From Nereocystis luetkeana (lineage: Eukaryota > Sar > Phaeophyceae > Laminariales > Laminariaceae): a stretch of 64,000 bases of DNA. The notes beneath the pieces were generated by a model, which saw only the letters and a program-made list of their open reading frames with translations, ran no database searches and was not told where the DNA came from. Position 1 is the stretch's first letter. Every line of letters begins with the position of its first letter. This document shows positions 11,311 to 61,392 of the stretch, piece after piece. The stretch spans positions 4,101,049 to 4,165,048 of the forward strand of contig JARUPZ010000002.1 in assembly GCA_031213475.1 (NCBI GenBank), given 5' to 3'. The position numbers and the translations under genes are program-made.

Positions 11311-11457
11311 AAAGTAGGACGGGAGGGAGAACACTTTCGAGTCACGCTAAAGCCGAAAGCGAGCATGGAGCGGCAGAGGGTGGAGACAGAAAAAGTGTCG
11401 GCAAATGGTTACACTACTAGGGTTGGAGAGTTGCTGTTGTTTTTTTGTTGTTGTTTT

Positions 11458-12035
11458 CTCACATTAACTCTCTGACGAAGGAGTCCGTGGTCACACAAAG
11501 GTGCTGGAGCCCTATTAATAGGAAGATCCGAAAAACAAAAAAAAACCCCGAAAATTCGGCTGCCTCAAAATACACGAGACGGAAAAAGCGCACACGAGCT
11601 AAAACCAATGTGCAAAACTGAACTAACATGGCCGCGGGTATATCCTCTCAACTATAATATAGAAGAGTACCCCCGTTCCCACCACTAACCAACTCGTGGC
11701 TGCTGACTACAGCGGATGCTGTCTGAAGTGCTGCCTGCACCGTACGAAACGCACGGTAGTCGTGAAAACGAAATAGGAACACACCTGCCTGCTATCTCGA
11801 GTGCTGTCAGAGTGAAGACTCGCGGGTATGCAGTGAAAAAAGGAGCAATCGAACCTTACTACCACACGAAATCAACGATCGCCATCTCTTCCTGGACTGT
11901 CTGACACAAAAATGTGCAGCACAGATATGATACCACGTCCCTGATAATTGCGTAGGTTATTCCCCATGAAGGGTATACAACTCGTTTAACTACAAATTTT
12001 AATACCAGTGACGAGTACCGGTAGATACTATTCTG
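11458..12035 (+). repeat. ~570-bp dispersed repeat F, copy 1
   Basis: Nearly identical in order and content to 38519-39090 (CTCACATTAACTCTCTGACG at the start, GAGTACCGGTAGATACTATT at the end). Both are preceded by a TTG microsatellite. This copy carries TATTAATA at 11513-11520 where the other copy has only TA, a clean 6-bp difference. Frames inside differ between copies, so it is not coding. Confidence 0.9.
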
Positions 12036-19320: not shown

Positions 19321-19620
19321 TTACCAGGTAGGAGATACCTGGTAGGAGATACCAGGTAGTAGGTAAGCTGCGAGCTCGCATCTGGTAGGTCTTGTTGCCC
19401 ACCAGTATATTATTTTTATATAGGTATATATATATAAAATAGGTATATATACCTATATATATTATATATACCTATATATTATATAACATATATCATATAT
19501 CTATATATATATCTATATAACATATATCATATATCTATATATATCTATATAACATGTATCATATATATATATAGATATTTATCTATATAGATATATGATA
19601 TATGATATATTTATACCAGG

Positions 19621-20076: not shown

Positions 20077-20181
20077 TTACGGGGGACCATAGTTAATAGG
20101 ACCAAATATTGATAGTAAAAATGGTTAAATATATAGGTTTTTATGTTTACCATAGGTCCTATTAACTATGGTCCCCCGTAA
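20077..20181. mobile_element. 105-bp MITE (family A)
   Basis: TA at 20075-20076 and right TA at 20182-20183. Near-consensus and exactly 105 bp, so probably young. Confidence 0.96.
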
Positions 20182-20576
20182 TATGTTGTAGCAGCTACTA
20201 TTAATAGCTGCTTGTGCTTTTGTGCTCGTGTTGACGTTATCCTATCGTATTTGCCACTACTACCGGTATGATTGCCCTTGAACCCCGCAACATCATTCAC
20301 TGTTGTTCTGTTTTGTTCCGTGTAAACGACGCTGATTGAATGGGAGACCTGAATTTTGTCGTCTCGCCGCGGTATTCTGTGTTATTACACATGGGCGCCA
20401 ACTAATTAGGAGAAGGAAATATTTTTACTATTCATATGAATAATAGCTTGTTACTACCCTGTGTGACGCACGTACACGTAACAGGTACCAGGTATATTTC
20501 AATATTATGGTGCGCTGATGATTTACTACACTAGAATATGATACCCTTTTCTGCGCTGTGGGCAAAAAACATACCA
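20182..20576. other. Spacer between MITEs
   Basis: TACCAGGTA at about 20485, TATTAATA at about 20199. No gene. Confidence 0.35.
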
Positions 20577-20681
20577 TTACGGGGGACCATAGTAAGTTGG
20601 ACCTACGGTGCAAACCAGAACCTAAGTATTTCCCTATTCTTCCTAACAATATGTGGGCCTATTTGCTATGGTCCATCGTAA
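20577..20681. mobile_element. 105-bp MITE (family A), diverged
   Basis: Ends TTACGGGGGACCATAGTAAG and GGTCCATCGTAA; right TA at 20682-20683, left flank CA. Exactly 105 bp despite many substitutions, so an older copy. Confidence 0.9.
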
Positions 20682-20743
20682 TAGCAATAGCAATAGGTGC
20701 AGTAGTACCCGCTCCGCCGGGGTCCATATGAATAGTATTACTA

Positions 20744-20848
20744 TTGCGGGAGACCACAGTTAATAGGACCTACGGTACAGACAAAAACCTATACATTTAC
20801 CTATTTTCGATGACAATATTTGGTCCTATTTACGATGGTCCACCGTAA
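20744..20848. mobile_element. 105-bp MITE (family A), diverged
   Basis: Ends TTGCGGGAGACCACAGTTAA and TGGTCCACCGTAA; left TA, right CA. Exactly 105 bp. 62 bp from the previous copy. Confidence 0.9.
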
Positions 20849-24136: not shown

Positions 24137-27100
24137 GTGGCAAGCGGGGTCTGCGGTGTAACACTTCAGCAAGGGCACCGGGCGGTACGTTTTCCATGTG
24201 GGCAAGGGCGCCACGTGCTCCTCGTTCGTAGTGTGGTAGAGGCCCTAGCGAGAGGCCCCGCACCGGCACCACTCCGCTGTCCAGCCGCCGACTGCGGAGC
24301 CCGACATCCCAGACGGGACGCGCTGGAGGCAGCGGTCCAAGCTGACCCGGGTCTTCGCAATCGAGCGGCGCGGATGAGAGGGGGAACCATAGGTGACGAG
24401 GACCTACGCAGCCGGGGGCTTTGGTGCGGATGGGACCAAAACAGCCTGTTCAGAGGGCCACCACTCGATGCCGTTTCCTTGAAAGACCTGGGGCAACGTT
24501 TCGCAACCGAGAATACAGTACAGCCGCAGCTGGCAGGAGCACATGCGCGCTTGAGCGTCCACGCCCTTGGCATCCTCAACCACGCTATGGGAGAGCACCG
24601 GCCGAACCGGGACTCGGCGACACCGAAGTCGCTCTTGGGGGCGATAAAGTTATGGTACCCCATGCCAGCCCTTGCTCCACTCACCGGACGGCCGGATAAA
24701 GAGGCGACGGAGGTTCGCGCTGGCGGAGAGCGTGGACATAGTGTAGTGCTCCTGCTACCATGGCTGATAGCGTACACCAGGAGAGAGGGCTTGGGACAAC
24801 GGGATGCCGCCCAGGAAGCTTCGGAAGAGGCGAAACTTGAACGAGCGTCGTCGGCGTGTCGCCACGCGGGAGGGGTCAAAGTGGCAGCACGCAACCTTCT
24901 GGCAAAACCACGATCAGCGGGGAACGTGGAACACGTTGATGGCCAAATTTCCCCCGAAAACCATGCCGCCGTGTCCGCGGCGGCGGCCGCAGTGCTAGCG
25001 AGCGGCACTGAGGTGGAAGATGGAAACGCCCCCCCGCGGCGCCCTGACGATGGGTATGCCTCCGAGGTGATAATCGACGTCATCAACTCCCGGAGCGCCC
25101 TCTCAGGCCCCGGAAACGACGGTCAACGATCAGCCCATCTACAATCCATCATTCAAACCGATATCGGCAGAGAGGAGCGCGGAAGTGGCGTGACAGCCTT
25201 CTGGCGGAGAATCGTCGATGAGCCGGACGTGTTCCCGCCAGAGTTCTGGCAGCTCTTCCTGCAGTCGAGCCTCGCTGCGTTAGGGGAAAAGTGCCGGACG
25301 GTCTGCGTGGGTATGACATGGAGGAGGCTCATCACCGCAGGGGCTATGCGACAGTGGCGACCGCGGTTGGAGGAGGTATACCGAGAGGTGGGGCAGTTTG
25401 GGGTCGCCGTACCCGGAGGAGTGGATCATGTGGGATTGAGGGCTAGGATGCTACACGAGACGGGCAACTGGCTTGTTCTCTCGGACTGCTCCAACGCCTT
25501 CAACACCGTAAAAAGGACGGCGGTGCTAGGAGAGGTGGTAAAAATCGTGCAAGCGCTCACGCCTTTAGTGGCCAAGTGCTACGGCACAAGATCAGCCGGC
25601 GTGTATTTCCGGATGGACTCAGGAAAGATCAGGATGATCGCTTGCTACAGCGGTGTCCAGCAAGGGGACCCCACATGGGATCAGCAATGGTTTGCTTGGC
25701 GTTACGACCGGGGCTGAAGCGATCCCGGCAGGAATTCGAGAGACAAGGAGCGGGATCCTTCGCGTACATGGGCGATGCTTCTCTCGGCCTTACAGGGATC
25801 ACGGCCAACACGATTAGAGCATTCGCCTTCCTCCGACGAGAGCTAGAGGACATCGGCATTGTGGTCAACGCCGCCAAAACAGTGGCACTGCCGCCAAAAG
25901 GGCACGCCCCGACGAGGGAGGAGATTTCGCTCCTTGAAATCGTTGAGATCCGTGTCGCAGACGAAGGAGGGGTGACGGTGGTGGGTGTCCCAATCGGAAC
26001 GGAAGAGTACGCGCGGGGGCGAGCAATGGAGGTAGTGAGGGGTGGGGGCGCGGACCGCCTTGCGCGCTGCCTCGCTAACATGCCCGACAAACAGGCGGCG
26101 GCCCTCATCACCGTCCAATCTCTCGGGCAACGGACGAGTTACCTCGAAAGGGCTCTGGACCCGGGGTTGTCTCTCGAAGCTTGTAAAAGAGCAGACAACG
26201 GGGCCCAGTGGGCGTACGAGAAAATCCTCGAACTACCGGGAGCGGCGGAGGCACAGTCGTTTTTCCAGGAGGGGTGCCCGGATAGTCGGCTGACTCTCAA
26301 ACCTTACCAGCAAGCCCAAGCATGCCTTCCTACGGGAGCGGGAGGGTTCGGGCTGCCGTCGACAGAAGCAAGGAGACTGTCGGCATCCATCGGGAGCAGG
26401 GTGGGGACCTTGCCGAAGGTCCTAGCAGACCTCACAGGGCCGTTAGGGGATAAGTTGAGGGAGGGGGCTCCCAGAATCGAGCATCATTGCTCAGCTGGGA
26501 AACAGCTTGCGGGAGACTAGGGATACATGGGGGGTGTCACAGGAAGCGATGGCGGGCATCGTCCCCGAATCATGGTTGTAATGGGGTCTAGGCGCAGAGG
26601 GGGGCAGGGCCTCGAGACCCCCAGAGACCGACATGCTGGCTGCACACGACGCCACAACCACGAACTCATGCAAAGTCCGACAGAAGTTGGGCAGGTTGGT
26701 AACCCAACGTCGGCACGCAGCCCACGCTGCCTCGCTAGAGGAGCTCCCGGAGACGGCACGCCCCCCGGACCGGGCGACTCGATGGGTGGGGCCGAAACCA
26801 AAGCCCTCGCCAAGGCTCGCTATAGGAGCCTACAGGGGGCAGGAGCTACGGCATGCCTTGGGGCGAGACCAACGAACTCACTCCGGGTCATACCCGCAGA
26901 AGAGTTCGTGGGCATGAGAAGGCGGTCCATTGGGATAGGGGAACACGTGGCAGTGAGGTGCCCCTGCTGCGATGCAGTAGACGTGGACACTCGCCACGCG
27001 CGCATCTGTCCCAGAGCAGGGGCGCAGGCAAATCAACACCAACCGCTCATCCACGCGACGTCCCGAACGTTGAAGCGGCTGGGAATTCCACACCAAGTGG

Positions 27101-27660
27101 AAAGCGGCGAATTGTTCACCGCTGACCGAAATCTGCGGATGGACATTGTCGTCAGGGGAGGAGGTCTACGGGATGCTCCTAATAGGGAGTATAGGGAGAA
27201 GTCCATCCTGCTGGACGCCACCCATGCGGATCCTCAAGCGCAGGTACTCCTGCGAGGAGGCAGTGACGATCAAGATGGATCAGCTGCCTCTACCTCCGAG
27301 GCGCGCAAGCGTCAACACTACGCTCGTCCGGGACATGTGTCCTTTGACGAACGGAGTCACAAACTTGCCACTTTAGCAGTGGAAAGCTTTGGGCGTCTCG
27401 GGATAGAGGGCAGTAAGTCCATCGACCAGCTGGCTGCTAGTGTAGTGGGCGGGAGGGATGGTGGGTCGATGGGGAGGAAAGGATTGGCGAAGGAACGCCT
27501 ACTCCAAATCGTCTCCGTGACTACACACGTCGCCATTTCGAGGAGGGTATCGCGATTTAGACTCCAGCTTAGGGGTCGTCAGGAATCGAGAAGGAGCAGG
27601 GAGGGGGGGGATGACAGACCCACACCGATGGCGTGGGGATGGAGCTTGGATGCGGGTTAG
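24137..27660 (+). pseudogene. RT plus restriction-like endonuclease ORF, frameshifted
   Basis: First part, 24137-25717: N-terminal FPCGQGRH....RCPAADCGARHP, resembling a RING/IBR-type finger with Cys positions lost; then RT blocks CRTVCVGMTWRRLITAGAM, LVLSDCSNAFNTVKR (motif A Asp at 25484) and YSGVQQGDP (motif B, 25650-25672). Right after motif B two extra bases shift the frame. The second part, 25576-26520, holds SFAYMGDASLG at 25756-25788, where YxDD is expected, so the first catalytic Asp is Gly. It stops at TAG 26518. Frame then switches near 26520-26640 and again near 26805 (RWVGPKPKPS to LAKARYRSLQ). The last part has C-X2-C-X8-H-X3-C (26959-27012), then RMDIVV and ILLDATHADP (27135-27240) as candidate endonuclease acidic residues. 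At least four disabling lesions. Confidence 0.88.
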
Positions 27661-30170: not shown

Positions 30171-31620
30171 TGCCATGATTTAAAAAAAAAAAACACGTAC
30201 GAGCATACTACCTGTACTATAATATTACCGAAAGTTACCACCAATTATTTTATGCTTGTCATCCTGTGAAGGTGTTACCTACTGAGCAATCCGACGATGT
30301 GTACGAAGTGTTGTTGTAAAAACAAAAAAACGACTACCTGGTATTATTAATAATAACAGAAAGTAAGTCAAGAACTCTCCAGTATACCTACCTGGTACCT
30401 GGCACTATTTATTACCAGGTAATACTTTCGAAGTACTTTTTTACTTACACTGCAGATAAATCTATTTTACCTGATTTTGTATGATCTACAGTGTGGTACA
30501 TAGCTCATCATAGATAGGTTGCCGGGCGGAAGCCGTACGACACACACGTTGAACTCCCTGTGGGTTGGACCTACAGTATATCATCTTCTTCTGTACCAGG
30601 TATAATATATATGGTACCTGGTACAGAAGATCCTGCTCACAGTCAACATAATAGATGTATCATCACGAACGAACGGCAGATATATAAATAAATGATCTGG
30701 ATGCATTGATCCATCTATCTATCTGTGGGTGATCTATATGTGGTGCTGTAGATAGTATAGTGACATGTGATCCGTTTGAGGTGTGCAACGTTGCAACACG
30801 GTCGTCGTGCAGTATTGGGGCACGAGAGTGAGTGAGGGTGAGCGTGTATGATGATGAGTGTGCACAGCCGCAACTTTCTTTTGAAGGCAAAGCCGCGGGC
30901 AGAGAGAAACAACAGATAGATACTGTAAGTAGATGATTCTGAAGATACTTTGTTGGCGGTAGCGCGGAAGCCCGGAAGGCAGAAACTCTTGTGTGCGAAC
31001 TCGTCCTCGTACGTGAGGTCGAAAGCCCACCTGGAGGACCTCAGCACAATAAAAAACGTTACTGTGTGTTCTACTACTGTACGTAAGCGTTACAACTATA
31101 CGAACGAGCTCTGTGACACGGGCTGCGCGAGCTTGTTATGGTACGCGAGATCCACGAGAGCCATAAGGGAGTTATTTACAGCGTGAATCAAACCCGCCGC
31201 AGCCGCAACCGTTTCGAGCGCCGGACATCAATGACGTTACAGCTATCTGTATCAGCTACGATCAGCGTTACAGCTATACGAGCGAGCTACCAGGGTACGA
31301 GGCACGTATGAGCCACGAACCACGAGCCTTGAGCGACGAGTGAGTTTTGAGTTTACAACTATTGCCAGGGTATATACAACGGAAATCCGGAAATCCAGTC
31401 CGCCGCAGCCTCAATCCTCAAAACTCAAAGTAGACCCAAAACCGCCGTGTCGAGCCAGAAAATTGCGAAACGAAACTTCGTTCGATAGTTCTTCGGTTTC
31501 ATTCGTCATCCGACAAACCGATTATAGAATGGAATCGGTTTCTAAATTCGGTACAGAAACGGAACGGAGGCCGCTGTGTGCCTTGTCAATCTCCTTTTTC
31601 TTCCGCTTCTTCTTCCTCTT
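30171..31620. other. Intergenic with several CCWGG scars
   Basis: TACCTGGTA/TACCAGGTA at about 30336, 30389, 30410, 30597 and 30614. Diverged GTTACAGCTAT...CGAGC repeats at 31090-31290. No coding sequence recognised. Confidence 0.4.
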
Positions 31621-31812
31621 CTCCTTCTTGCTTGCCCATACATACCTCACAGCAGTACTAGTCCCACATATACCAAGCACTCAAGCCTTCCCTTCCACAC
31701 CCGCGCAGAGCACGCACAGATCGCACAGCCCGCACTGTAGAGCAAAGCGAGGCCCGCTGAGGAGCACCACCTTCAATCCAGCGAGAAGCGGGTCGGGCTT
31801 CCCAGCGTTGAG
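31570..31812 (+). promoter_or_regulatory. Pyrimidine-rich leader of the PH-domain gene
   Basis: 31585-31635 is almost entirely pyrimidine (repeats of TTCTTCC/CTTCTCC), 180-230 bp before the proposed ATG at 31813. Such initiator-like tracts are common near transcription starts. No TATA box is evident. The transcription start is not determined. Confidence 0.35.
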
Positions 31813-32459
31813 ATGGCTCTAATTCAATCGGGCCCGGCGGCAGCAGGAGGCGGAGGGGGCAACCCGGCCCTACCACGTATAAGCTCCAGGACCTTCCGAA
31901 TGTCTGATCAGGACGACAAGGCAAGTGGTTATCCCTGCTAGCTGCGACCGGTTGATCGTGACGCAGAGCCTAGCGTCCACCAGAGGGTTGCTCTGCTGCG
32001 TGCGTGGGTTCGAAGAGCGAGCAGCGCTGGAGCTCTTTTTTGTCGCTGGCCCTGTTCTGTGTGCAAGCCGGTCTCGTATATTTGTTTCAGTGTGTAAAAA
32101 ATATAAGAGAATTACACGAGTGACTGCGAGGAGCCTCGTTTTCCAAACCAATTTCCATCCTTGGTTGTGCCCCTGGCAGCTGACTGAGAGATCAGCGGCC
32201 AGCCTTTGTCGCTCAATTTAGCGGGATCGATGTGTTCACGAGTGGGCATGGGAGGGGTGGGTGCAGCCCCAGGCGCAGGCATCGCGTGAGATGAGAGTCA
32301 CGCAGGCTGTAATCTCTGATACGCTGGCTGTTATTTTTTTTTTGTTTTTCAATTTCGTTCTGCGTTGTTGAATTTCTAGCTTTTTTCGACCTTCGGCCCC
32401 GTCAAGCATACACGCCGTTGAGTTACGAGTACTGCTGTAAGTCAACTTACGCAGAGCTG

Positions 32460-32492
<33 letters not shown>

Positions 32493-35400
32493 CACGCTTG
32501 GTATTCAATTTTGACTCGGGTGCGGGTATCGCTCTCGTGCCCGATGCATATCAACAACTACTGGCTACTACAGTTGTGTGCTGTAGTTGACATTTTGGTG
32601 GCGTGAGGATGCACACGGCAGACCAACGGAACGATTCAAGTTTGGATAACGCCAGAACTGCTGCTGTACAAGCAGCACGTATGTACCTGGTATATATGTA
32701 CGAGTACAGCGCAGCAGCAGTAGTACACGCGTTCCTTTAATTTTTTCACGTCCTCTATTCAAAAACGTAGTAAAAAACTGCCCTACTCATTGTGTTCATC
32801 AGACAACATCAGACATACATAACTACACTGTTGATGAGCATCAAAGCGCTTGATGCACTTGATGATACGGAATGACCACCACTGCACGCGTTTCGGCCCA
32901 AATGCCGAACTGAACAGACTGGAGACCGACACAAATGGGTCCGACTCCTGCTCCGCCATAACAAAGCCAGCTTCTCCTCCGCCCTCGCTGGCGTGCTCGA
33001 TCCTCACTACTGTCCCTGTTACATGCACCCTTCCACCATCTATTATCCGTCTTGTCTGATTTTGTGAACTCAGAGACCGGGGGAGGGGTCGACGTCATCA
33101 ACTTGAAATGCACGATATCGAGAAATGGAAAATGCACTATCTTCTCTCGTACGCGCCTACTGCTGTTGGTATCTATACTGTAGTATGGGAGTGTACCAGT
33201 GTGTGTGTACACTTCCGTACGACTCGAAACTCGAGGAGCAGCAGGTTTATTCCGCCGCTGCCTCTCTGTTGCTGGTAGGCTGCTTGCTGCTCCTGCCTGC
33301 TGCTGGAGGTGATGATGAGGGTGCTGCTGCTGCAGTTCTTGCTTCTTGAACCAGTTTGTTTGTTTCTCGTTTTCGTTCGTCTGTTCCGTCTGATGATGTA
33401 CTTGTACTGGTACCACCTATCGTATGTGTGTACCCGTATTAAATAATGTCTGCTTCGTTGTTTGATTAATCATTGCGATCGTCGAATGATGATGACGGAT
33501 GAAAGATGATAGCGACCATTACTAGAACAGACCACGCAAGCATCGGGAAGGAAAAAGGGGGGCGGGGCGGGAGGGGTGTACGCAGCAGTACGTGCTGCTG
33601 TAGTGGCACAGGGTACCAGGTCGAGGTACCAGGTACGGCAGTACCATGCAATACCCGAGGGTATGGCAATACGCACGCATCAATCGATACCGTCGTCGTG
33701 ATGCTTATATATTCGAATACTCTTTACTATTAAAAGTAGTATTAATACTGTTGATATTACTACTTTGCTGTACGTACCCTTGATACCCGTACTGACCACG
33801 TACTGCTGTAACACGGATCGTACTGATGTTGGCATCAGACGTCAGAGGTCATACGGCAACAATTGGTCGACTCGGTGCCTTGATCTGTGATGTTTCATGT
33901 TACGGCGGGTGGATGCCCGTCGCTTGTCGGGAAATCAACGGCGTACCATACGAACCGACGTACAGAGTTACCAAGGTAGTAGTTACCTGGTAGTACGTAG
34001 GCTGCGTCGGGGGTACCAGGTACCAAGTACCTGGTACCTGGTACCTGGTATGATTTATGCCCTCTAATGTAGATTTAGAGTGTAGGCTTAAAAACAGTAC
34101 CTGGTACGCACTAACTGACTGTAGTGTTCTGCAGTATTGTTCTCTAAGCCTTTTTTGTCGCAAAAAATCATGGCGTAATCTTGGACCATCCCAGCCGAGC
34201 GACACACGCTGCACTCACAGCAATGACTGCTGTACGTCTGTCTGCATGTCTTACTCCTCGTTTGCTTGCGTTTTGTGGTTCGCTGTCGTCGGCACTGCTG
34301 CTGTTGCAGGCTAGTCAAGAGGCCGTTCTGAGCGAATTCAAGGCGCGCTTGGCGGAGGGATTCAGCCTCACCAAGCACAGCCGCTCGGGGAAAGCGAGGT
34401 TAGATGCTGCGTGCCGCACATATTATATGGTTATACTCTTTACAACTATCAATATACGGCGTACCTGGTATATGTATTTCTCTGTAATTATCAAACTCGT
34501 TTGAGCTTGGTCGGTGTTATTTGCTTGGTTGCTTGCCCGGCGGCCATTTCCTTTTCTTTAGCTTTCCAAGACCTTTTTTGTTGTGCCTTCTTCGTTCTTG
34601 CCCTGTGGCTATACATGCATGCACGAGTAGCTGGTACGAGGAACGAACGCCTGCTGTGTTGTCTCCCCCTTTTCACCTCGCGACGCCCCCGGGATTTCTA
34701 GTCAAACGTAATCCCGAAGGAGAAACCTTTTATATTTTATTCGTACGTGGTGATGTTTATCAATATTAACAGCAATCAAGTTTTCGTCTTTTCTTCGGAC
34801 ATTTTTCTTCATATTATACACGCGCGCGCTTTTAGACAACACGTTCAGGAAGCGCGTACGAGTAGACAGAGGAAGGCGGTCCGGACACGGGCGGTCGTCG
34901 ATGTTTGTGCGCGATCCGTGCAGTGCATCAGTGTGTCCGTATGCACATCATATTGAACCAAACACCCCGATCATCATCAAGGATACAGCGGTATGTGTTC
35001 TTCGCATGAAGCCGTTCTTTCTACCCGTCGATGTCCAGCACAACCAGTTGGCACATCATGTACGTCGGTATTTTTGTTGAGGGCCGGGCAGAGGTCGGAG
35101 CTCGGAGCAGGCAAGTTTTGTACTTTGGACCAGGTGTATTTCATTTTTCGGAATTTTCAATTTTCCTCCGACCTCATGTTGAAATTTTTTTTTTCTATCG
35201 CCGTGGGTTTCCAAGAGCGAAGGCTTTTGTTGTCATTTTTCGCCCACCTGGGGTCTTGCGACTTTTACTGGAACCGGAAAACACAAAACGAAACAGGTTT
35301 TCCCGTCATCGTGCAGGATCCCGTGAGCAATGCGGTCAGTAGTCGACAGTCGTTGGGGTCATTTATGTACTCTACCCAAAGCAAAGAGAACAAACCACCG

Positions 35401-38400
35401 CCACGAGTCTTTGCCTCACATCAGGGCACGGATCACGCTAAACCTTCCAAGGATGTGTGTAGCATGATCCGTTCTTCCGAGAGCTCTCGCTCCCAAGTTT
35501 TTGAGGGCCGCAAGTAGTATTCTTGTTCGTGGGGGTGTTGGTGGTAGCCCGTTGATGTATCAGTTTTTGTGTCCCCGATCGGAACCTCGTGTTCTGTGCA
35601 GCGAAATGTTGATCCACAAATGGAGCAGGCTGCGTATCACGCCCCAAGCGAGACCTCCAGGCACTAGACCACCCACAGCCCTAAAAAAACTGAATCACCG
35701 ACGACTCTCTCTCTCTCTCTGTGCAGTGGGACACGCACCCTCGAAGTGCTGTAGTGGCCCGTGCTCTGTGGGGCAAGCACTCGGTGACAGCGGTTAGTGG
35801 TGCGCTGAAAAACACGTACCAGGTACCAGGTAGTATTTCTTGCCGCCTCGCGGAGGTAAAAAAAAAAGAAGGCAAAGCATTGTTGTGTGTGGGTTACAGC
35901 ACGAAAGGCATCCCGCGTGATCTTTTATTAATACCAGGTAGTCTTTTGTTTCTGTTTATGGCCCCCTGGTAGTGGTCCTATTGATGCGGATAGACTTCAG
36001 ACTCGAGGCGGTGTCAGACCAGAGGCGAGGCCACTCCGCCATTGGAGAAAAACCTACCATCACGGGAGACCATAGTAAATAGGAACAAATTCTGTCAGTG
36101 AAAATAGGTAAATTATATACCAGGTAGGTTTTGTGTGTACCGTAGGTCCTACCAGGTATTTACTACGAGTATGGTCCCCCGTAATATTAATAATACATGT
36201 TCCAAATGTGTGTACCAGGGTAAACTATTAATAGGATGCAACACACCCATAATGTGTTGTATTGTAACACCGGCCTACATGCAGTCAACCCTTTAAGCAC
36301 TGCAGTCCCGTTTTGGGGACAACCCACTTTAAGTCCAAGTAGTTTGTCCCAAAGACGAGACTGCAGTCCTAAAAGACAACCCCGTGGGCGCTTCTGGTGT
36401 ATCTACGTATGTATCTAACTGGGTGGAGCCTCTGACCGAAGGTCCCTCAGCCCGGACAGACTATTCCGTTTCCGCTTGACGATTTAGGTATTTCAAGCCA
36501 TATGTAGGTACAGTTAGTACTCCCGGTATATATTATCTGCGGCAGCAGGAGCTCATGTTTTAGGGTGGAAAACGTACGATCGGCACGATCTAGCACATGT
36601 ATCCTGGGCTGGATTTATATGTACTGTGCAGATCCTCTTCAACCTCTCACTACGACAGGTGAGGAACTAGATGATCTACTGCTGTAGACAGATGGATAGA
36701 TCATGATCTGGCCGAGGTGTTGTTTGGCGCTTACTGATCCCGTACAACCTGAACCACAACACACGAGAAAAGCGATTCAGCGATTCCTGCAGGCCTGCCT
36801 ACGAAGGACGTCGTGAGCGTAGGTAGCACTCTCACCCCGTTCGCGCACCACGTATGTACAGAGGGCGGTGCTCGATTTCGCGGCTTTCGGCTTTTTGTGC
36901 GCAGGCCATCCGTCACCTCAGGTCGTTTTGGATGAGACTTGCTTGCGTTTTGTGCCCTCCGGGATCGCATTGTTGATGGCATGGTTGATGGCATGGTTGC
37001 GGTTTTCGTCAGCGCCGACGCCGATCCACGTAATTCTACCTCACTATTAATTCCACTAGTTCACTATTGAAATCAGAAGCAGAGAACCTCTCGTCGCATG
37101 GAATACAAGGTTAAGGTTTCGTGCTGACCAAAAACACCCTATATACCCTATCCTAGCCAAAACAAAAAAAATGTTGTTGTACCCGTATGTTGTTGTTGTT
37201 GTTGTACTCGTATGTTGTTGTTGTCTTCACATTAGATCGTCCTTTCTACCCAGCCTTCATCAGTACACCCAGTGTCCGTCCTGATCCCTTATCCTAGAGA
37301 GATACTGATTCTTCTGCGGTCACAGACTGTGAGACAGAGGAAGACCAAAAATAAACGCGAGGATCGGGGCTGAACAGGCTAACTCTGCTACCCCCACCGC
37401 GAAAAACGAGGAAATGGGGGGGGGGGGGGGGGGGGGGAAGAGGAAAGGTCCGACCCGCGGCCTCAAGATACATTGATTCCGTTCCGGTAGGTATTCTATT
37501 AATAGATACCAGGTATCCTCGTTGGGCGCATGCGTCTCAGGTCCAGGCTTGCGGCAGACAAACCCCGTCCGCTCCGCAAGCCGCAAACATGTTCTCCTCG
37601 TGTTTGGACGCTTCTTGAATCTTGTTTTTTTGTTTTCTTCGAGTGGCTGCGAGTGGGTACTTCTTGTCTGCTTTTGTTTTCGTGTACGTGAAAAGTTATT
37701 CAATGCCTGATGCGGTGGCTTCTACCGTAACCTTTGCTGCTGCTGCTGTTTTTTTTTACTGCTACCGTACCACCCCCCGGTGATAGGATAGCACACCCCC
37801 TCGGGCGATTTCCAAAGCTGATGTTTTCGACAACGGGGAGGGAGTGAAACGGCAAGCGACGCGTCTGAAAATATCTCGGCGAGATATTTCCGATATTATT
37901 TCCAATGCCATCATTTTCGTTGTTCGTGTTTGCCGCCTCCCTTACGGCATGCTTTCGAGAAAATAGGTTCTGTTTTTTTTTTTTTTTTTAGGGAAGTTGT
38001 TATTTTTGCGTGTTATACGACATGGTAGGTGGTACTGCTGCTGCTGCTCCTGCTGCACCACCATTAGCGTCTGTAGCCTCTACTCGTAGCCTACATTCAA
38101 ACTTGTCCTAAGTACGTTTTCACCCTTTTTGTAGATGCAGTCTGCCATAAAAGGCCGATCGTTCGAGTTGCCTCGTCCCAGGCCCTTTCGCGCGACACTT
38201 CACGGACTATGTATGTACACAAAAAATACAGAGAAATTGCACGTACGTGCAAGGTTCTGGGTGGGGCGCTGCGGGGTCAAAGCACCAGACGGCAACAGGG
38301 TGTGCCAGGTGGTACAAAAACTACCCTCTGGTACGTACCTTCACTCTCAGGAAGACCACGCGTGTGTGCGCAATTTCTCCGCTGGTTTGTACCAGTATGA

Positions 38401-41400
38401 AGTTGCCCTCTGTACCGAGCACCAGGGCATGAATTTCGAAGGCTCGAGAGAAAATTTTAATATTTTTCTGCAGGCGTAAAATCGGCACATACAAGCACAC
38501 TTGTTGTTGTTGTTGTTGTTCTCACATTAACTCTCTGACGAAGGAGTCCGTGGTCACACAAAGGTGCTGGAGCCCTAGGAAGATCCGAAAAACAAAAAAA
38601 TCGAAAATTCGGCTGCCTCAAAATACACGAGACGGAAAAAGCGCACACAAGATAAAACCAATGTGCAAAACTGAACTAACATGGCCGCGGGTATATCCTC
38701 TCAACTATAATATAGAAGAGTACCCCCGTTCCCACCACTAACCAACTCGTGGCTGCTGACTACAGCGGATGCTGTCTGAAGTGCTGCCTGCACCGTACGA
38801 AACGCACGGTAGTCGTGAAAACGAAAGAGGAACACACCTGCCTGCTATCTGGAGTGCTGTCACAGAGTGAAGACTCGCGGATATGCAGTGAAAAAAGGAG
38901 CAATCGAACCTTACTGCCACACGAATATCAACGATCGTCATCTCTTCCTGGACTGTCTGACACAAAAAGGTGCAGCACAGCAGTTATGATACCACGTCCC
39001 TGATAATTGCGTAGGTTATTCCCCATGATGAAGGGTATACAACTCGTTAAACTACAAAAACCAGTGACGAGTACCGGTAGATACTATTCTGCACACTATA
39101 TCGCCCCGGTGGTTCAAGTCGAATTCTACTTGTGTTTGAGTCCTGGGTTCGGGCCCCAGGTGGGTCGGACATTTAACTTTATTTGCAAAAATCAAAATCA
39201 AAAGGATTCAATCGTTGAGGGCGCCTTGCAGCGTGTGTGTGTGTGTGTGTGTTCTTCACATTAAACCGTTCTTTCTACCCGTCGACATCCAGCACAACCA
39301 GTGTCCGTGCCGATTCTTCAATCCTAGAAGAGATACAAGTTCTGTGGTCACAAAGCTACGCCACAGAGATACTACGTTGCCACGTGTGCAGTGTGCACTG
39401 CAGTGGGCAATGCAAAGCCATGTCATCATACCTGGTACTAGATACGACAGGCACGACATACGCAATCTATGAAATAGTGAAACGAAAAGAAACAATCAAA
39501 GAGAAAACAAAAACAAGGTAGACAAATCGAAAGAGAAAAAGAAGAAAAATGAAACCAAAATCTAAGAGAAACAATCTGTCGTGCCCCCCCCCCGCAGGCG
39601 AGGTGGCCAACACTTGAAAAAGAACGAGCTGGAAAAAAGAAGAAAAAACAAAAAACACCACTGCTTGTGAACAGAGTAAGACAAAGAACCAAGGAGAAAG
39701 TAACAAGGAAAAATAACGTGGGTAGTCACAATTCGATGCGAGTCGACCAGGGAAGAAAAGGCTGAAATCTTCTCGCGATAAAAATGAAGGCACGTACCGT
39801 AGCGGGAAGGGGGTAGAAGAGCCTGCTATGTGACCCCGGATCTGAGTTACGAGTTGGAAGGAGAGAGAGAAGAAGATGTGCGACGATAATAAATGGAATG
39901 AGCAAAAAAAAAAAAAAAAAAAAGTCCAGGCGCGAACCCGTGATTCGTTTTTTTTCTGTGGTCCTCTTGCTGACATTGTCTGCCCCCTTCATTGTTTGTG
40001 CTCGTACTATTAACCCCTTTAGAACCGCAGTCCCGTTTTGGGGGCAAACCAGTCAAATTTCAAGTAGTTTGTCCTCAAGACGGGACTGCGGTCCTAAAAG
40101 GGTTAATATTATATCATACCGACTCTGTTGACGGCCCATACTGCTGCTGGTCGTACAAAACATAATACCCGAAACGACGCTCGCTCTGTTTTCTTTGTTT
40201 CACATGAAAGAACGGAAGGAGCACGCTTTTTTCTCTTTTCTGATTCTCTTTTTTTGGGAATCGTACCCGGTACGATGATAGCGAGGTGTGAAGACTGCTG
40301 TATGTTATAGCGGGCATGGGTGCCGCGGACGTTATCTCGAATCTCGGAACTTTTTGAATTCCAATTTTGTACCGCCGGGAATCCAACAAGATAATGCTTG
40401 TGCAACGATGTATATGATGTGTAAATTCCAAATTCCCTTTTTACGTATCATCTAACATACCAGGTACATATCATACATGACCTGGTACCTCGTATACGTA
40501 TACCTGGTACCAGGTACATCATAACAACATACGTGTTAATTTCAGTATACCTGGTATCAGGCCATTGCAACGATTGCATAACCCTCTTGCACTTAACTCA
40601 CCCTCGTACCAGGTACGAACTACGAAGCCTATTTTCATATTATTCCATTCGTCCACGTGATATTATATCATACTCGTACGTACCTGGTACCTGGTGTCAT
40701 GGAATCGAGCTTGTTTTCAGTTTTCGTCGACGTGCCTGGCCCGACCTTGCCTCCGTCCGTCTCTATTTCTTTGAGTATCTCAGCCGTTTCGCTGTATCAT
40801 TATAGCACGTCACGTACGTAGGTACTTGTGCCATGTGGGTTCGTGTAAAATGTACCGGAACAGCAGCAGTGGTGGTTCAGTTATAAGGCGACTACTAATA
40901 CTATGTACTACTATTAATAGCTGTACTATTGCTGTGTGGTGACAGGCGGCTTGAAGCCGCCTCATACTTGTGGCCGTACTCGCCTAATCGCCGAACAACG
41001 CCTTTGTAAGGCTTGTCGACGGTGCCTTTGTAAGGCGTATCGCCTCACATGCCGGTACTATTCAGCCATGCAGCAAACAGCATTAGTATTTTTTTGAGTG
41101 CCAACTGTCAGGCTTGGAGCTGCGAGAGAACGTGTTCTATCGTGTTCCCAGGACGCGTGTTTTCCGCGCAAGCTTGACGTCCAGCTACATCGGGATAGTC
41201 TGTGATGAACGGCAGCTGTGGACCTGCAGTATACTGGTATACAATGAGGTCTTGCTGCCTACTTCCATCAGATTATTGTCGTTTGTTTCAGCTCGTACTG
41301 CACCTGGGTGTGAGATGCCTTGCATATCATGAAGAACGCCTCAGATACGGTACACTTTACTAGTACACTTACATACTATCTAATACCAGGGTATGAACCA

Positions 41401-44400
41401 ATGATCAGTACCGCTCTAACGATCTCCAAACATGATGTGCAAATAGATTTTGCTCTGCGATTCACCTTTTACGTCTACTTGCTTGGCCGGGTCTCTTGTA
41501 GGCATACATATGCCGTCATGGAAGCCAGTTTTGGCGGGTGTAGTAGACTGGTTTTACTCATGGATGGGGTGACTTCGGTCCTACGACTGGTGTAGCTTCG
41601 CAACCGCACTACTGCTGTGACTCGGCAGACTCAATTTCCTTCTCATTCACAATCAGTCGTACCCTGGTAGGTTTTATGATTTTGTGGTTTCGCGATATGT
41701 AGCTACCTGGTACATAGTATTAATAGAATGTCTCCAAGCCTTCCTTTGAGCGAGAGGTGAAGAGCCACTCGCCTGAGTGGCCTAAACGTACGTAGCGAGA
41801 AAAAAAGACCACTGCTGCAGTGCTATGATATAATATCATGTTGTTGGAACCACACGCGAGCGACACCAAATTCTCCGAGTTCCATGATTTATCCTAGACA
41901 AAAAAATCATGGGTGAGGTAAAGGCGGCTTAGGACGAGAGTTGGATTTGAGCGGGGGGAAGAGAGGGGGGGGGGGGGTGATTGTGAGATAGTGGGTTTCG
42001 CCTTGGAGAAGGGGTGTATTTGAATGGGGGGGAAAGGGGCGGGGGGGGGGGCATGGCGTCTCGTCGTTGCTGCTTGCTCCGGCATACACTCCAAGCTGCC
42101 CGAAGATCACCGACGTATCTGAAGAAACATATATTGCGCGAAGAGCTGTATAATATTAGTAGCGGTTGCGAAAACAATGGACTGCCTGTGCAGCGCGCGG
42201 CGAGGTGAGGGGCAGCAGTGCCTTACGATGTATTTGTACTTTTTCTGTGTAGGGAGTCGTTTGAATAAGGCGATCGCCCGCGTTCGTATAGGTATCTCCA
42301 TAGCCTATACAAGGCACAAGGCAAGTTGTAAGCTCCTACTTTATACCTGGTAGGTCGTGTCAAGGCATGTTCGCCTTATCCCCTTTAGAACCGCAGTCCC
42401 GTTTTGGGGACAAACTACTTGAAATTTGACAGGTCTGTCCCCAAAACGGGACTGCGGTTCTAAAAGTTATGCTATTAATAGCCGTACTCGCGTCATAAAG
42501 TATGTCTTACCAGGTAGAACTTGCAACGGGAACCACCTCTTCTGTTTTATGTTATCATATCATACCAGCTGCTGTGTACCTGGTACAAAGGTACCATGGG
42601 TGAAAATAAAAATAAAGTGTCGTGTGTGATTAAATCAGTCTGTTTTGAGCCGAGCTGTTTCAGCCGATCTGATTCAGCCGATCTTGATTCAGCGCCCTAC
42701 CGACGTGCACTACCGACGTGCACTATCAACTATTAATATGAAGCCCTTTAGGACTGCAGTCCCGTCTTATGGACGAGAATTTGAAAGGTTTGTCCCCAAA
42801 ACGGGACTGGAGTCCCAAGAGGGGGTTAATAACTGCATACTTTTAAGCCTGTTCTTCTCTCTAATCCCCATTACGGAGGACCACAGTTAATAGGACCAAA
42901 TATTGTTGGTAAAAATGGTTAAATATATAGGTTTTTATGTATACCATAGGTCGTATTAACTATGGTCCCCCGTAATACCTGGTAATGAATTGGCCCACAC
43001 ACCGGGAGCGCCGTTCGGAACTTTGAGAGCTGCGTTCAAGTTTTGGCGACAGCCCGCTTGAAATTTGACATTACGTATAGGTTTTTGTAATGTGGGGAAA
43101 TGGCTTCAACAAAGGGGTTGAAGCGGTACGTACCTTGATGTACGCATCATAAGTGCCGATGTACTATTACGGGGGACCATAGTTAATAGGACCAAATATT
43201 GTTGATAGAAATGGTTAAATATATAGGTTCTTATGTATACCACAGGTCCTATTAACTATGGTCCCCCGCAATATATATACAGTATAAGAGTAGCCAAATG
43301 TACAAGTAGCGCGAGCTATGATACTATGATGGGAAAACATCTTGGAAAATTATCGAGAAATTGTGTCTGGGCAGAATTGCCTACCAGGTATGTATTAATA
43401 CGTACGTACTGATAATATTAATAATCGTGAATATCACAACTACAAAAGCAGTACTGCTTGTATGTATACCTGTACGTCTGCTGTGAAATCGACCGGTTGA
43501 GTGACCGATACTGAAAAAATTGAACGCGCTCATGATCTGTGCGTACACGTATAATGTTCGAATTCCATTCAAATATATAGTTTTCTCGTATTTGTGTATT
43601 TTCAACCAAAGTTTACAGATTTAGACCTATGCCAATGGTACAGCGAAGTTGCAATAAAAAGTTTGAATTTCAAAGATACCCGCCAAAAAATTCAGAACAC
43701 GCTTCCCATGGGCCACCTAAAAAAACAAAAAGTTCCTAACTTTTGGAAAAGCCCGAAAAAAGCAAATCTGGGGCCGATGTTGGGCCAACATCGGCTTGAG
43801 AAAAACTCAGGCTGATCTTTGGTTCGAAGCGGCGAGATTCCGAGTCCTCGGCAGACATCGATCAACAAAACCAACGACTGCGTCATGAATTCTGAACGGC
43901 GTGCACTCGTTAGGGGCTCCGACCCACCCCAGGGTCACCGTCTTCACACCATGGCCGGTGTCATGTGGTGGGAGCTGACCAGACGTGTGATAAAAAAACA
44001 TTTGGCCGCTGGTTTGCACAAAGCAGAAGACAACTTCTCCATCCGTCTCGAATGGCAAAAAAAAGACTTTTTTTCAGGTTTGGGAGGATACCGTAGGACG
44101 CCGCCGGCAAGCTCTCGCCCCCTAGACCATGGATCCGCCTGATATCTTCGAGGCCGTCATCTATACTCGTTGGGCTTGCCAGATACCGAGTGGGTTGGCC
44201 GTGGGCTGAGTCTATGTCAAGATCGAGCGTCGATCGTCGCACGAGCTGGTTTCGATCACCGTGTTGACAATTTGCGACCAGAAAAACACAAATTGCGCCG
44301 CCTGCAGCCGTTGGGGAAAAAAAAAGAAAAAATCAAACATTTTTCTCTTTTTACGAGAAAAATTTCGGCTGTTTTTTTAAAGCGATAAATTTGAAAAATA

Positions 44401-57300: not shown

Positions 57301-59984
57301 TATTACTCGCCGGCAAGATCATCTTTCCCTTTTTCTTCTTTCGTTTGGTGTGCGTGCGTGTACCCAGAGCACGGCACCGCGGGTGAGCCCGGCGCCGTCG
57401 CGGGTGCCAGCGGGCGCTGGCGGATCGAGGGCGGGGGGTTGCAAGGAGCGCGGTCGCCGTTTTTTTGGCTAGGCTTCGCGTGTGTCTGGAGACACGAGGG
57501 GAGCATGAATGGGTTCTGTCTGGCGTCCTGGTGTGGGGTTGGATATACTTCAAGTAATATGCACGAGTCTATAAGGGTCGTTTGGGATTGCAAACTAAAA
57601 TTCAAGCAGTGCTTATTTTTCGACCAAGATGCATTTCAGAGAGAGAGCATCAGAGTTTGAGCACCAACATTGTCGAGCTGGCGAACGAGCGCCACGGTGA
57701 GCGCCGGGCTTCACGCGAGGCGCGCGACGGGGTTCACTGTTGAAGAGAGGGAGGAAAGTTATACCCGGACCGAATCGGCGGCGAGGCGGTCGCGAGAGGG
57801 GCGAGCAGCGTTTGAGGCAGAGAGAAGGTCTGCTGTCCGATTTTCATTTTACCGGCGTAAGGTGTTCCAATCAGGCGGAGAATCATCTGAGGGGACGGCG
57901 ACTCTTTTTTCTTTCTGAAATTATTCGGTTTTCATTTTTTTCATTGTTTTTAAAATTCCGCGCCGTGCTGTCCTTCTTCTTTCGTAGGGTTGGGTCCTGG
58001 ATCAGTATATACTGGCAGTACTCCTTGTACTGGACTAGAGGCTGCCAGTACAGCCAGTACTTGGCCCACCTACGTACGTCCTACACTATGCCTCCTACAC
58101 CACATGGAAACCCACCGAATTTCGCCGGATCAGAGGGGAGAGGCTCTGTGAGACGAAGGCACGCACACACTAGAGGGAGTTGGGTACACACGATGGAACA
58201 ATCTAATAGCAGTAGCAGCAACGCGCCCTCTGCAGACCCGAACGGCGGGTCTCAAAATCCCGAAGCCGCCGCGGCCTCGAGCGAACCCGGTGAAGCAGAA
58301 ATAGTGGCGGTCGCGCCACCTACTGCTGCTGCTGCAGGCCATCAGCAGTCGCAGCAGAACCAACCGCTTGAGGGAAAGCTGCAACGGGTGAACCACGAGC
58401 TTCGTAAGTCAAAGCCGGCTAGCGCGTACATGCGCTAATATTCGAGACAAGCATTTCAATTAAAATATTACCAGGTACAATACATACAAACTTTGAAACT
58501 TTGAAGTATTTTATTCATGGCTTCGAGTGAGGACGTGTTGATGAAATATGACCACCATGGCTTTCAACTTGCTTCAAGATGTTTCGGGAGCCGCTTGCTG
58601 ATGAATATGTTGAATACACAGCCGTGTGATTAGTGATTAGCTATGTCACCCACCGATGTCAAGAACATTAGTCAACATATTTGACTGTTGTCCACAAATA
58701 TTTTGCGTTAACGTACTACTGTATTTATACCCGAGTCCCGCAGCATCGAAGTGGCCCAAAATCAACCAAATAATATGTTATACTCGTACTCGTAGTGAAG
58801 CCAAATCGCGTAAAAACACGCCTCCGTCGGGGCGCCTCCAGCGGGGCCCTCCGGGGGCGCCTCCGGCGGGCGCCCCTCACCAGCCGGGGGGGGGCGGTGG
58901 TCGCGGCTGCGCCGCGGCACCAGTGTACTGTTTGGACCCAGTGTACTGGCTGCTGACGCAACCAGTACCCAACCCTTACTTTCGTACATACGGTATCAAA
59001 AAAACAAAACAAGTTCGTACCCTACCTGGGGTATGTACGCACATGCATGCGCCGTTCGGGTTGTTTTCCTGAGTGGAGCATGGAACTCTTGACATTTGCT
59101 AGTCGCCTGTTCGCACCTAATTGTTTGGGTCGTCTGTCCCGTTCCATTCTTCATATTACGGGGGGCCATAGTTAATAAGACCTATGGTATACATAAAAAC
59201 CTACCTGGTATATATGTAACCATTTTTACTGACAATATTTGGTCCTATTAACTATGGTCCCCCGTAATAGTGAGCTAGCGTAGCGGGCGGAACCGTCGGC
59301 TACGCGAAGCGCTTGTTGCACAAATACGCACCAGCCGCAGCGCCGCAGCAGTTACGAGCTGGCAACAGCAGTCATGTTATATACCAGTATGAGAGAACGA
59401 AACTGCTGGCATTCCTGTAAATGGAGTGTTCGTCCGTTTCATTAAATGGCGCGCACCTTTTTCGATTCTGACTCCTCCTCCTCCACCTCCGCCCCGCCAG
59501 TCTGCGGTTTCGGGGCCTCGAACGATATCCCCTTCGCCAAGTCCAATCCAGCTCCCGCCGCGCCGCCGGTAACAGCGTCAGCCGCAGCAGTTACATCGCC
59601 CACAGAGTTCACCTGCGCCTCCGCGCTGCTGCCGGGCGCGACAGACGATGTGTCAGAAGCTGGTACAGAACTCGGGGCACTCTCTTCCCCACCCGAAGCA
59701 TCACCCACCGCACCGAGGCACGAGCGCCGGCGCCCTCGACGCGGCAAGGCCTTCGCTACTGCGACGTCACCGGCTGCGTGGATCGCAGTCGTCGTCGTGT
59801 GTCGTACGCGGGACGGTGTCAACAGCAACGGGGTTGCTGTTGGTCTAGCCGCGTGAGGCGCATGAGGCGTGGACGCCAAGAACGATCGAAGCGATGGGGA
59901 ACGCGCCACCACAACGAACGAGAGGCCTCCGGAGAGTTGAGCGGCCACGAGTAGGGCCACGAACACGGAGCTGGGGTGCATCAT
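54327..59984 (-). CDS. Plastid-targeted, single-pass membrane protein, two exons
   Basis: Proposed model: complement(join(54327..54431,59457..59984)), 210 codons. Exon 1 starts MMHPSSVFVALLVAAQLSGG, a signal-peptide-like hydrophobic stretch, followed by LSFVVVARSPSLRS. A Phe right after the predicted cleavage site and then a Ser/Arg/His-rich, acid-poor stretch is the bipartite presequence used to enter complex plastids in stramenopiles. The middle is Ala/Ser/Gly-rich; it ends in an acidic run EVEEEESESKK. Donor AAG|GTGCGC at 59456; acceptor CTCTGCAG before 54431; both phase 0. Exon 2 encodes VRVILYTVLSLVPFLLLLPF, a membrane span, then LGGRELMPLDPSQM and stop. The mature protein is probably an N-out or stroma-facing, tail-anchored protein of an inner plastid membrane; function unknown. 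The 5-kb intron holds minisatellites and a MITE. Retaining the intron would stop after VRAI. Confidence 0.72.
55070..55430 (+). repeat. Minisatellite CCTACGGTGCGGTTCGGTGC
   Basis: About nine imperfect units of 25-40 bp built from CCTACGGTGCGGTTCGG and TGCGGTTTT plus AAATCGGAAAT or TATTGT spacers. It encodes a SYGAVRFGAVF-like peptide, but units differ in length modulo three. Inside the intron of the plastid gene. Confidence 0.92.
55480..55725 (+). repeat. ~90-bp tandem repeat, three units
   Basis: Units contain TCTACGGTGCACCGTACGAA, TAAACCGTACAAACCCGCGG, TTTCGTACGGTTCTCAGGC and TTTTTCTCGGGGCACTAA, starting near 55483, 55573 and 55680 (third shortened). The palindrome GGTGCACC and the paired CCGTAC/GTACGG words could form hairpins. 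Confidence 0.88.
56590..56830 (+). repeat. Second block of the CGGTGCGGTTCGG minisatellite
   Basis: Six units related to those at 55070-55430, beginning CACGGTGCGGTGCGGTTTCG and ending CCCTACGGTGCGGTTCGGCA. The two blocks are 1.2 kb apart. Confidence 0.9.
57225..57335 (+). repeat. ~55-bp tandem duplication
   Basis: GGATACCGCCTCCTTCTATT, ACTTGCCGGCGAGATCATCT, TTCCCTCCCATCT is repeated with three substitutions. Confidence 0.9.
57336..58087. other. Sequence within the plastid gene intron
   Basis: Contains short CCAGTAC-type direct repeats (58005-58070). Open frames on both strands have no motif. It may contain the leader of the candidate exon at 58088. Confidence 0.35.
58088..58403 (+). CDS. 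Candidate first exon of an unknown gene
   Basis: From the ATG at 58088 the frame encodes MPPTPHGNPPNFAGSEGRGS, a Ser/Asn/Ala/Gln-rich middle, and EGKLQRVNHELR, ending exactly at a consensus donor CTTC|GTAAGT (58404). An alternative start is the MEQSNSS Met at 58193. No downstream exon was found, and it lies inside the opposite-strand intron of the plastid gene, so it would be a nested or overlapping gene. Function unknown. Low to moderate confidence. Confidence 0.35.
58404..59155. other. Non-coding spacer
   Basis: TACCAGGTA at about 58469. 58815-58915 is strongly GC-rich with GGGGCGCCTCC/GGCGCCTCC repeats. No gene supported. Confidence 0.35.
59156..59267. mobile_element. 105-bp MITE (family A) with one CCTGG scar, 112 bp
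   Basis: 112 bp = 105 + 7. TACCTGGTA at 59202-59210 stands where the consensus has a single TA (CCTATATAT). TA flanks at 59154-59155 and 59268-59269. It lies just downstream of exon 1 of the plastid gene, within its intron. Confidence 0.95.
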
Positions 59985-61275: not shown

Positions 61276-61281
61276 GTACTA

Positions 61282-61392
61282 TTGCGGGGGGCCATAGTTA
61301 ATAGGACCTATGGTATACATAAAATCTATACCAGGTATATTTAACCATTTCTAGTAACAATATTTGGTCCAATCAACTATGGCCCCCCGCAA
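61282..61392. mobile_element. 105-bp MITE (family A) with one CCAGG scar, 111 bp
   Basis: 111 bp = 105 + 7 - 1. TACCAGGTA at 61329-61337 replaces a TA of the central ATATAT. Ends TTGCGGGGGGCCATAGTTAA and GGCCCCCCGCAA share the same base changes on both sides. Left TA, right GA. Confidence 0.93.

What the first reader, a model, noticed from the sequence alone, without database searches (positions are those of the whole stretch)
36060..36184. Ultra-short TA-CCWGG-TA insertions, caught inside copies of a 105-bp MITE
TACCAGGTA/TACCTGGTA (reverse complements of each other) occurs about 50 times in 64 kb; two specific 9-mers are expected about 0.5 times (2 x 64000 / 4^9). MITE copies prove it is an insertion. 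The copy at 36060 is 125 bp = 105+7+7+6 with two TACCAGGTA and one TACGAGTA where the family has plain TA. The copy at 59156 is 112 bp = 105+7. The copy at 61282 is 111 bp with one, and at 42976 one sits on the target-site TA. Every other near-full copy is exactly 105 bp. Each event adds CCAGG or CCTGG plus a duplicated TA. This looks like the excision footprint of a Tc1/mariner-type transposon (TA plus terminal bases plus TA, central base A or T), but with a 5-base footprint and at striking density. I know of no described element that fits.
Basis: partly seen in the sequence, partly recalled or inferred. Interest (0 to 1): 0.93.

Follow-up and report, generated by a model that had tools for sequence, protein, structure and literature searches.

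The report
Genome-wide scars of an unseen transposon
A short 9-letter word sprinkled through this genome looks like the scar left when a piece of jumping DNA lands at a TA site and is cut out again; the scars are extremely common and some differ between two copies of the genome, but the element that makes them was not found.

Summary
TACCAGGTA/TACCTGGTA occurs 56 times in the window (0.59 expected) and 182,395 times in the 465-Mb genome, against 1,744 for the reversed word. In MITE copies it is plain TA turned into TA-CCWGG-TA. One MITE TA has an insert beginning CC about 1,960 times (control 56); of 100 listed, 96 read as scars: CCAGG, CCTGG, CCGG, CCA, CCAG, CCATGG, CCAGGG and others, alone or in tandem. 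This is a spectrum expected from end joining after excision of a TA element whose ends read CCAGG. A second scar, TATTAATA (93,112 sites, control 10,689), fits excision of the MITE itself: its ends start TTA, the flanking preference matches, and a 4.27-kb relative encodes a DDE_3 transposase found in ten near-identical places. In host DNA from another source both scar types are polymorphic. The parent of the CCWGG scars was not found in what I could read.

The parts
36059..36185 (+). MITE-1 copy carrying three inserts
   Evidence: aligned with 17 other window copies; inserts listed
36118..36126 (+). TACCAGGTA scar at the TATATA hot spot of the MITE
36150..36158 (+). TACCAGGTA scar inside the MITE
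36164..36171 (+). TACGAGTA, a CGAG insert where the family has TA (possible further scar class)
   Evidence: L139:298 has CGAGG at the corresponding TA
59155..59269 (-). MITE-1 copy with one scar at 59202 at the same TA as 36118
61281..61392 (-). MITE-1 copy with one scar at 61329, at a neighbouring TA of the same TATATA
42870..42976 (+). MITE-1 copy; scar 42976-42984 sits on its target-site TA
34028..34050 (.). three scars in tandem (TACCTGGTACCTGGTACCTGGTA)
19322..19358 (.). three scars at 14-bp spacing with central base A, T, A
40458..40689 (.). cluster of six scars in 232 bp
30594..30623 (.). two mirror-image scars in the arms of a short inverted repeat
11513..11520 (.). TATTAATA, the scar class assigned to MITE-1; the paralogue has plain TA here
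   Evidence: 11442-12036 aligned with 38504-39092
36185..36192 (.). TATTAATA abutting the end of the MITE copy 36059-36185

Best explanation
TACCWGGTA is an excision scar. A cut-and-paste DNA transposon inserts at TA and duplicates it. It later leaves with staggered cuts a few bases inside its ends, and the host joins the broken flanks with end-derived letters between the two TAs. Most of the scar spectrum can be written as i letters of a left end CCAGG... joined to j letters of a right end ...CCTGG: (3,2) or (2,3) gives CCAGG/CCTGG, (2,2) CCGG, (3,3) CCATGG, (4,2) CCAGGG, (5,2) CCAGGGG, (4,0) CCAG, (3,0) CCA. The dominant central A or T is what a mismatch between the two overhangs would give, resolved either way. 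Shown: insertion at TA with TA duplication, recurrent events at one TA, the scar spectrum, the target preference, a difference between two sources of host DNA. Inferred: the end sequence CCAGG, the staggered-cut step, and that the element is of the Tc1/mariner superfamily. Not found: the element.
For: Counts 182,395 against 1,744 control. MITE alignments with plain TA as empty site. Inserts at and beside one TA differ, and for 8 of 11 copies the first-listed nearest copy has none. One MITE TA: 970+994 against control 31+25; of 100 listed, 96 read as scars (91 classed by script, one of them later excluded, plus six with a point change by eye). Of the 100 listed of 275 sites with CCWGG followed by A, C or G, by my count by eye 69 are CCAGGG+TA, 6 CCAGGGG+TA and 2 CCTGGG+TA. 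Flanks of 273 sides are enriched for TA at offsets 0, 2 and 5: 54, 59, 67 against 22.4, 24.4, 22.3 expected, like the ATATATAT target of a Tc1/mariner element in PMC7913693 (passages). In the same genome TATTAATA behaves as the scar of MITE-1, whose ends are known: similar flank preference to MITE insertions, TA versus TATTAATA between paralogues, a 4.27-kb relative with a DDE_3 transposase. Two of the four indels of 2 bp or more in host DNA from another source are scars, one of each class.
Against: No element with TA-CCAGG...CCTGG-TA ends was recognised in the window or the 264-kb sample, nor among the hot-spot sites listed (100 of 1,964, 100 of 275 and all 62). No transposase could be tied to it. 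A dominant 5-bp scar is longer than the 2-4 bp quoted for Tc1/mariner (PMC7913693, passages). CCAAGG, CCGTGG, CCGGG and CTGG do not follow from the simple rule, or only with an extra step. At the hot spot CCAGG outnumbers CCTGG 46 to 25 (p 0.017), which a symmetric repair does not predict. Left-right symmetry of the target is only weakly supported (p 0.061; p 0.09 in the window alone). 36059 and its nearest copy L139:607 share one scar.
Confidence: 0.9

Rival explanations
1. The 7-bp unit is inserted directly as a tiny autonomous or enzyme-made insert, with no larger transposon ever present.
For: No parent element recognised beside 149 exact scars in 264 kb or among the listed hot-spot sites; the insert is very uniform.
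Against: Variants CCGG, CCA, CCAG, CCATGG, CCAGGG, CCAGGGG look like different lengths of two element ends; TATTAATA in the same genome has a known element behind it.
Confidence: 0.05
2. The inserts are ancestral variants of a few MITE subfamilies, spread by MITE copying.
For: Several MITE copies share the same insert at the same TA, among them 36059 and its nearest copy L139:607; CCAGG exceeds CCTGG there.
Against: Different inserts at the same TA, and for 8 of 11 copies the first-listed nearest copy has no insert; only 11 of the 149 exact scars of the sample lie in the MITE copies listed.
Confidence: 0.03
3. The word is a binding site or motif kept by selection.
For: Strong enrichment and near-palindromic shape.
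Against: Inserted with TA duplication; decays at its TA letters mostly by transitions (149 exact; 109 one-mismatch words against 54.8 expected); one site differs between two sources.
Confidence: 0.02

Closest known systems
Tc1/mariner excision footprints (Sleeping Beauty, mariner, ZB)
   Same: TA target and TA duplication; end-derived letters left by end joining; three-nucleotide 3' overhangs in SB and mariner (PMC7827188, passages); AT-palindrome target and 0-3 bp footprints in ZB (PMC7913693, passages). The SB footprint C(A/T)G with central A or T, and the Tc1 footprint TACATGTA, are recalled.
   Different: Dominant scar is 5 bp; about 180,000 copies in one genome; parent not found.
Passer (pogo group)
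   Same: TA target in a palindrome, footprints 0-4 bp (PMC9976928, passages).
   Different: Other target consensus (AAGTACTT); studied in cultured cells.
Stowaway MITEs and associated mariner elements
   Same: Leave a small duplication and short end sequences on excision (PMC4561436, start of abstract).
   Different: Other element ends (recalled); no count of such scars in what I saw.
DNA transposon excisions between two rice genomes
   Same: Comparative detection of excision scars (PMC4423477, passages).
   Different: There 94 putative excisions, mostly with deletions or filler; here short, uniform scars.
Mariner-Tc1 families of the brown alga Ectocarpus
   Same: MITE with a larger autonomous partner of 4.4 kb (PMC12477816, passages), as proposed for MITE-1 here.
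   Different: The word footprint does not occur in that main text. That my host is an alga is a guess; no call names it.

Membership tests
Tc1/mariner-type excision scar (CCWGG) | sits at TA with TA duplicated | tested here: met
   MITE alignments
Tc1/mariner-type excision scar (CCWGG) | recurrent events with variable repair products at one site | tested here: met
Tc1/mariner-type excision scar (CCWGG) | palindromic AT-rich target preference | tested here: inconclusive
   AT-rich preference clear; left-right symmetry only p 0.061
Tc1/mariner-type excision scar (CCWGG) | scar letters equal the ends of a known element | tested here: inconclusive
   spectrum fits CCAGG ends but no element found
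Tc1/mariner-type excision scar (CCWGG) | DDE transposase of the superfamily linked to it | tested here: inconclusive
   DDE_1 and DDE_3 relatives exist; in the nine loci read (L158-L166) no CCAGG ends were recognised, the best such pairs being scars; most of the 45 DDE_1 places were not read
MITE-1 and its 4.27-kb relative as Tc1/mariner superfamily | TA duplication and terminal inverted repeats | tested here: met
MITE-1 and its 4.27-kb relative as Tc1/mariner superfamily | DDE transposase | tested here: met
   DDE_3 E 2.7e-12
MITE-1 and its 4.27-kb relative as Tc1/mariner superfamily | scar matching its ends | tested here: met
   TATTAATA = TA+TT+AA+TA; the excision itself was not observed

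The most novel reading that the evidence does not exclude
A low-copy, very excision-prone TA element (or a host-controlled TA-cutting DDE enzyme) passes through the genome by repeated landing and leaving, so that the scar and not the element accumulates: about 180,000 exact scars with no parent seen in the stretches read. Its activity reaches into the time since two sampled haplotypes parted, so the genome would hold a readable record of thousands of germline end-joining events at one defined break.
Probability: 0.3. Interest if true: 0.88.

Novelty: new variant of a known kind. Interest (0 to 1): 0.72.

Why it matters
One MITE position carries a CC-starting insert close to two thousand times, which is a natural, replicated assay of how a germline repairs a transposon break. 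The scars also count past transposition in a genome where the element itself is hard to see, and they are a source of small insertions. In about 4.9 kb compared between two sources of host DNA, 2 of 4 indels of 2 bp or more were such scars.

Tried and rejected
Parent search. Inverted TA-flanked ends in the window and sample gave MITE-1, a palindromic family with TTAA at its ends, a 2.3-kb element in L140, some other CC-starting pairs, and pairs of scars whose flanks happen to agree; one search lists among these 19731-21267 and 30335-35940, which match over about 14 letters but only 18 and 16 of 30, so I take them as chance. The output was cut after about 120 rows, within the window part, and these searches reach only 6 kb. 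One-sided ends: 31 in the window, 116 in the sample. The most promising repeated one (L133:276 and L142:7625) is similar upstream of TACCTGG too, so it is the inside of a repeat, not an end. Hot-spot patterns meant to reveal an occupied site gave scars, decayed scars and some unexplained continuations; three of these were fetched and are members of an unrelated dispersed repeat, the rest were not looked at. A candidate in L165 (TACCAGGTTCCGG...) looked like an end; the pattern occurs 6 times with differing continuations, so it is more likely a long scar. L162 is a 1,978-bp pogo-like element with CAGTACC ends.

Family searches. DDE_3 and Transposase_1 gave no match in the genome, yet the MITE-1 relative matches DDE_3 at 2.7e-12; so those negatives are not evidence of absence.

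Collections. The MITE pattern was absent from viral contigs. Pfam on 34 window stretches gave nothing convincing; Rfam nothing at its thresholds. Two text searches for the 9-mers returned 119 and 109 papers, 30 of each listed, with no title on this subject.

Dropped before counts: MITE hits under 80 bp (3 of 54); tandem neighbours in flank counts; MITE ends that a fixed pattern did not recognise (63 flanks used from 54 hits); a second, paralogous alignment. Loci L123-L130 were left out of the 264-kb counts. The sample comes from one contig, C2.

Full report
What was claimed and whether it is there. The window holds 56 copies of TACCAGGTA or its complement where shuffles give 0.59. The genome in which the window lies (465,085,209 bp, 1,987 contigs, no name given) holds 91,240 forward and 91,155 reverse, against 861 and 883 for the word read backwards. 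The named MITE copies carry the inserts at the places stated. In the window the sites are clustered: 27 of 56 have a neighbour within 60 bp, against a mean of 7.69 (largest 21) for 1,000 random draws of TA sites.

Insertion, not motif. In 18 window copies of the 105-bp MITE only three have internal inserts longer than one base. In a 264-kb sample (window plus twenty 10-kb stretches of the same contig) there are 54 MITE hits, 51 of them 80 bp or longer; 8 hold exact TACCWGGTA. Inserts at or beside one TATATA differ among copies: CCAGG, CCTGG, CCATGG, CCGTGG. Of 11 copies with recognised inserts, the first-listed nearest copy had none for 8. The three exceptions: 36059, whose nearest copy L139:607 has the same CCAGG at the same TA (while the two nearest copies of L139:607 have none); L139:298 and L138:4887, whose nearest copy L138:2068 has other inserts, with scar-free copies at equal distance. 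So events at this TA are recurrent, though some sharing by descent is possible.

The scar spectrum. The pattern TAAAAACCTACC, which reads from the MITE into the insert, occurs 970+994 times against 31+25. Of the 100 listed, my script classed 91 (46 CCAGG including 7 with a second scar, 25 CCTGG including 4 with a second scar, 8 CCGG, 4 CCAG, 2 CCATGG, 2 CCAGGG, and one each of CCGGG, CCA, CCCTGG, CCAAGG) and left 9. One of the four CCAG (C2:8187161) proved to belong to an unrelated repeat. Six of the nine left over are scars with a point change by eye, one of them running into a telomere-like repeat; three are other DNA. So 96 of 100 read as scars; that each is followed by MITE was judged by eye and not for every row. 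Among inserts CCWGG followed by A, C or G (137+138 sites, 100 listed) I count by eye 69 CCAGGG+TA, 6 CCAGGGG+TA and 2 CCTGGG+TA. This fits ends reading CCAGG with different numbers of letters kept from each side. Three of 62 listed inserts CCAGGT followed by C, G or T read CCAGGTGG+TA, which fits 5+3. CCAAGG, CCGTGG, CCGGG and CTGG need an extra step.

A second scar that fits a known element. TATTAATA is the other strongly enriched TA-X-TA word besides simple repeats: 21 outside MITEs in the window against 0.33 by a second-order model; 60 in the sample against 6.1 by a third-order model; 93,112 genome-wide against 10,689 for the reversed word. The MITE ends begin TTACGG, so two letters from each end give TA-TT-AA-TA. 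Outward flanks of TATTAATA (G 0.58, T 0.60, A 0.53 at positions 1-3 of 117 flanks) resemble those of MITE insertions (0.62, 0.41, 0.49 of 63 flanks). Two paralogous stretches in the window differ by TA against TATTAATA. The genome holds a 4.27-kb element with similar ends (25 of the first 29 letters of its right end agree with the MITE consensus by eye). Two copies are 99.5% identical. Its 513-aa frame matches DDE_3 at 2.7e-12; ten places match it at 98-100% over most or all of its length, four of them with one TGA. That it moves the MITE is inferred. This was my control for the footprint logic in this genome.

Target preference. Flanks of CCWGG scars are enriched for T, A, T, A at 1-4 (A2 only slightly) and T, A at 6-7; TA at offsets 0, 2 and 5 is 54, 59 and 67 of 273 against 22.4, 24.4 and 22.3. 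TATTAATA flanks differ, so a different enzyme is likely. The preference resembles the AT palindrome reported for ZB (PMC7913693, passages), but left-right agreement in my data is weak (p 0.061).

Age and polymorphism. 149 exact scars stand beside 109 one-mismatch words (54.8 expected), with transitions at the TA letters in excess; 51 MITE copies differ from their consensus by 10% on average. A rough reading is 3-4% decay per letter; this is my estimate. Two contigs filed under bacterial metagenome-assembled genomes contain host DNA at one end. It aligns to this genome at 97.8-99.2%. Over three stretches (2,131, 1,593 and 1,243 aligned columns, slightly overlapping) there are four indels of 2 bp or more: an extra CTGG+TA at a CCTGG scar in the genome, TATTAATA against TA, a GCA repeat and a 15-bp tandem repeat. 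Whether the other source is the same species is inferred from the identity. It also shows that the scars are not an artefact of one assembly.

The missing parent. Nothing with TA-CCAGG ends was recognised. The sample is 0.06% of the genome, so up to a few thousand copies could have escaped (my estimate), and genome family searches proved unreliable for this purpose. Few parents with many scars is possible if each copy moves often, because scars stay and elements do not.

Verdict. The scar reading is well supported; the superfamily of the parent is likely but not shown. As a mechanism it is of a known kind. I saw no description of such density, of a dominant 5-bp form or of thousands of replicate scars at one MITE position; my text searches cover only openly licensed papers, and I saw listings and passages, no whole paper.

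Noticed in passing
window 36164, L139:298, and 54 places in the 264-kb sample: TACGAGTA (or TACGAGGTA) sits where two MITE copies have TA, and TACGAGTA is 5.7 times enriched (54 against 9.5): perhaps a third scar class.
   Followed up: partly
L162:1109-3086 (in C7:10116000-10121400): A 1,978-bp pogo-like element with identical 20-bp ends CAGTACCGGCCCGC..., holding a DDE_1 match in a 542-aa frame; its left TA is the second TA of a TACCAGGTA.
   Followed up: partly
L165 (C17:1211600-1217000): A 599-aa open frame related (38-43%) to the MITE-1 transposase; its element ends were not found.
   Followed up: partly
window 5882-5978, 13646-13742, 36285-36381, 40010-40106 and others: A palindromic family of about 97 bp beginning TTAACCCTTTTAGAACCGCAGTCCCG, apparently flanked by TTAA.
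   Followed up: no
window 24137-27660: Long frames that look by eye like a non-LTR retrotransposon; no convincing Pfam match.
   Followed up: no
L121, L122 (JALZWC010000131.1, JALZWD010000061.1): Contigs filed as bacterial genomes begin with host DNA and continue as bacterial-looking sequence: apparently chimeric records.
   Followed up: partly
window 30594-30623: Mirror-image scars in both arms of a short inverted repeat, as if one arm had copied the other.
   Followed up: no
C1:21794860 (contig length 21,869,845): A decayed scar in MITE-like sequence runs into AACCCTAACCCTAAC, a telomere-like repeat, about 75 kb from the contig end.
   Followed up: no
C25:7101740-7102040, C10:3658800-3659110, C2:8186950-8187260 (L167-L169): A dispersed repeat that contains AAAAACCTACC by itself and so mimics the MITE hot-spot pattern.
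   Followed up: partly
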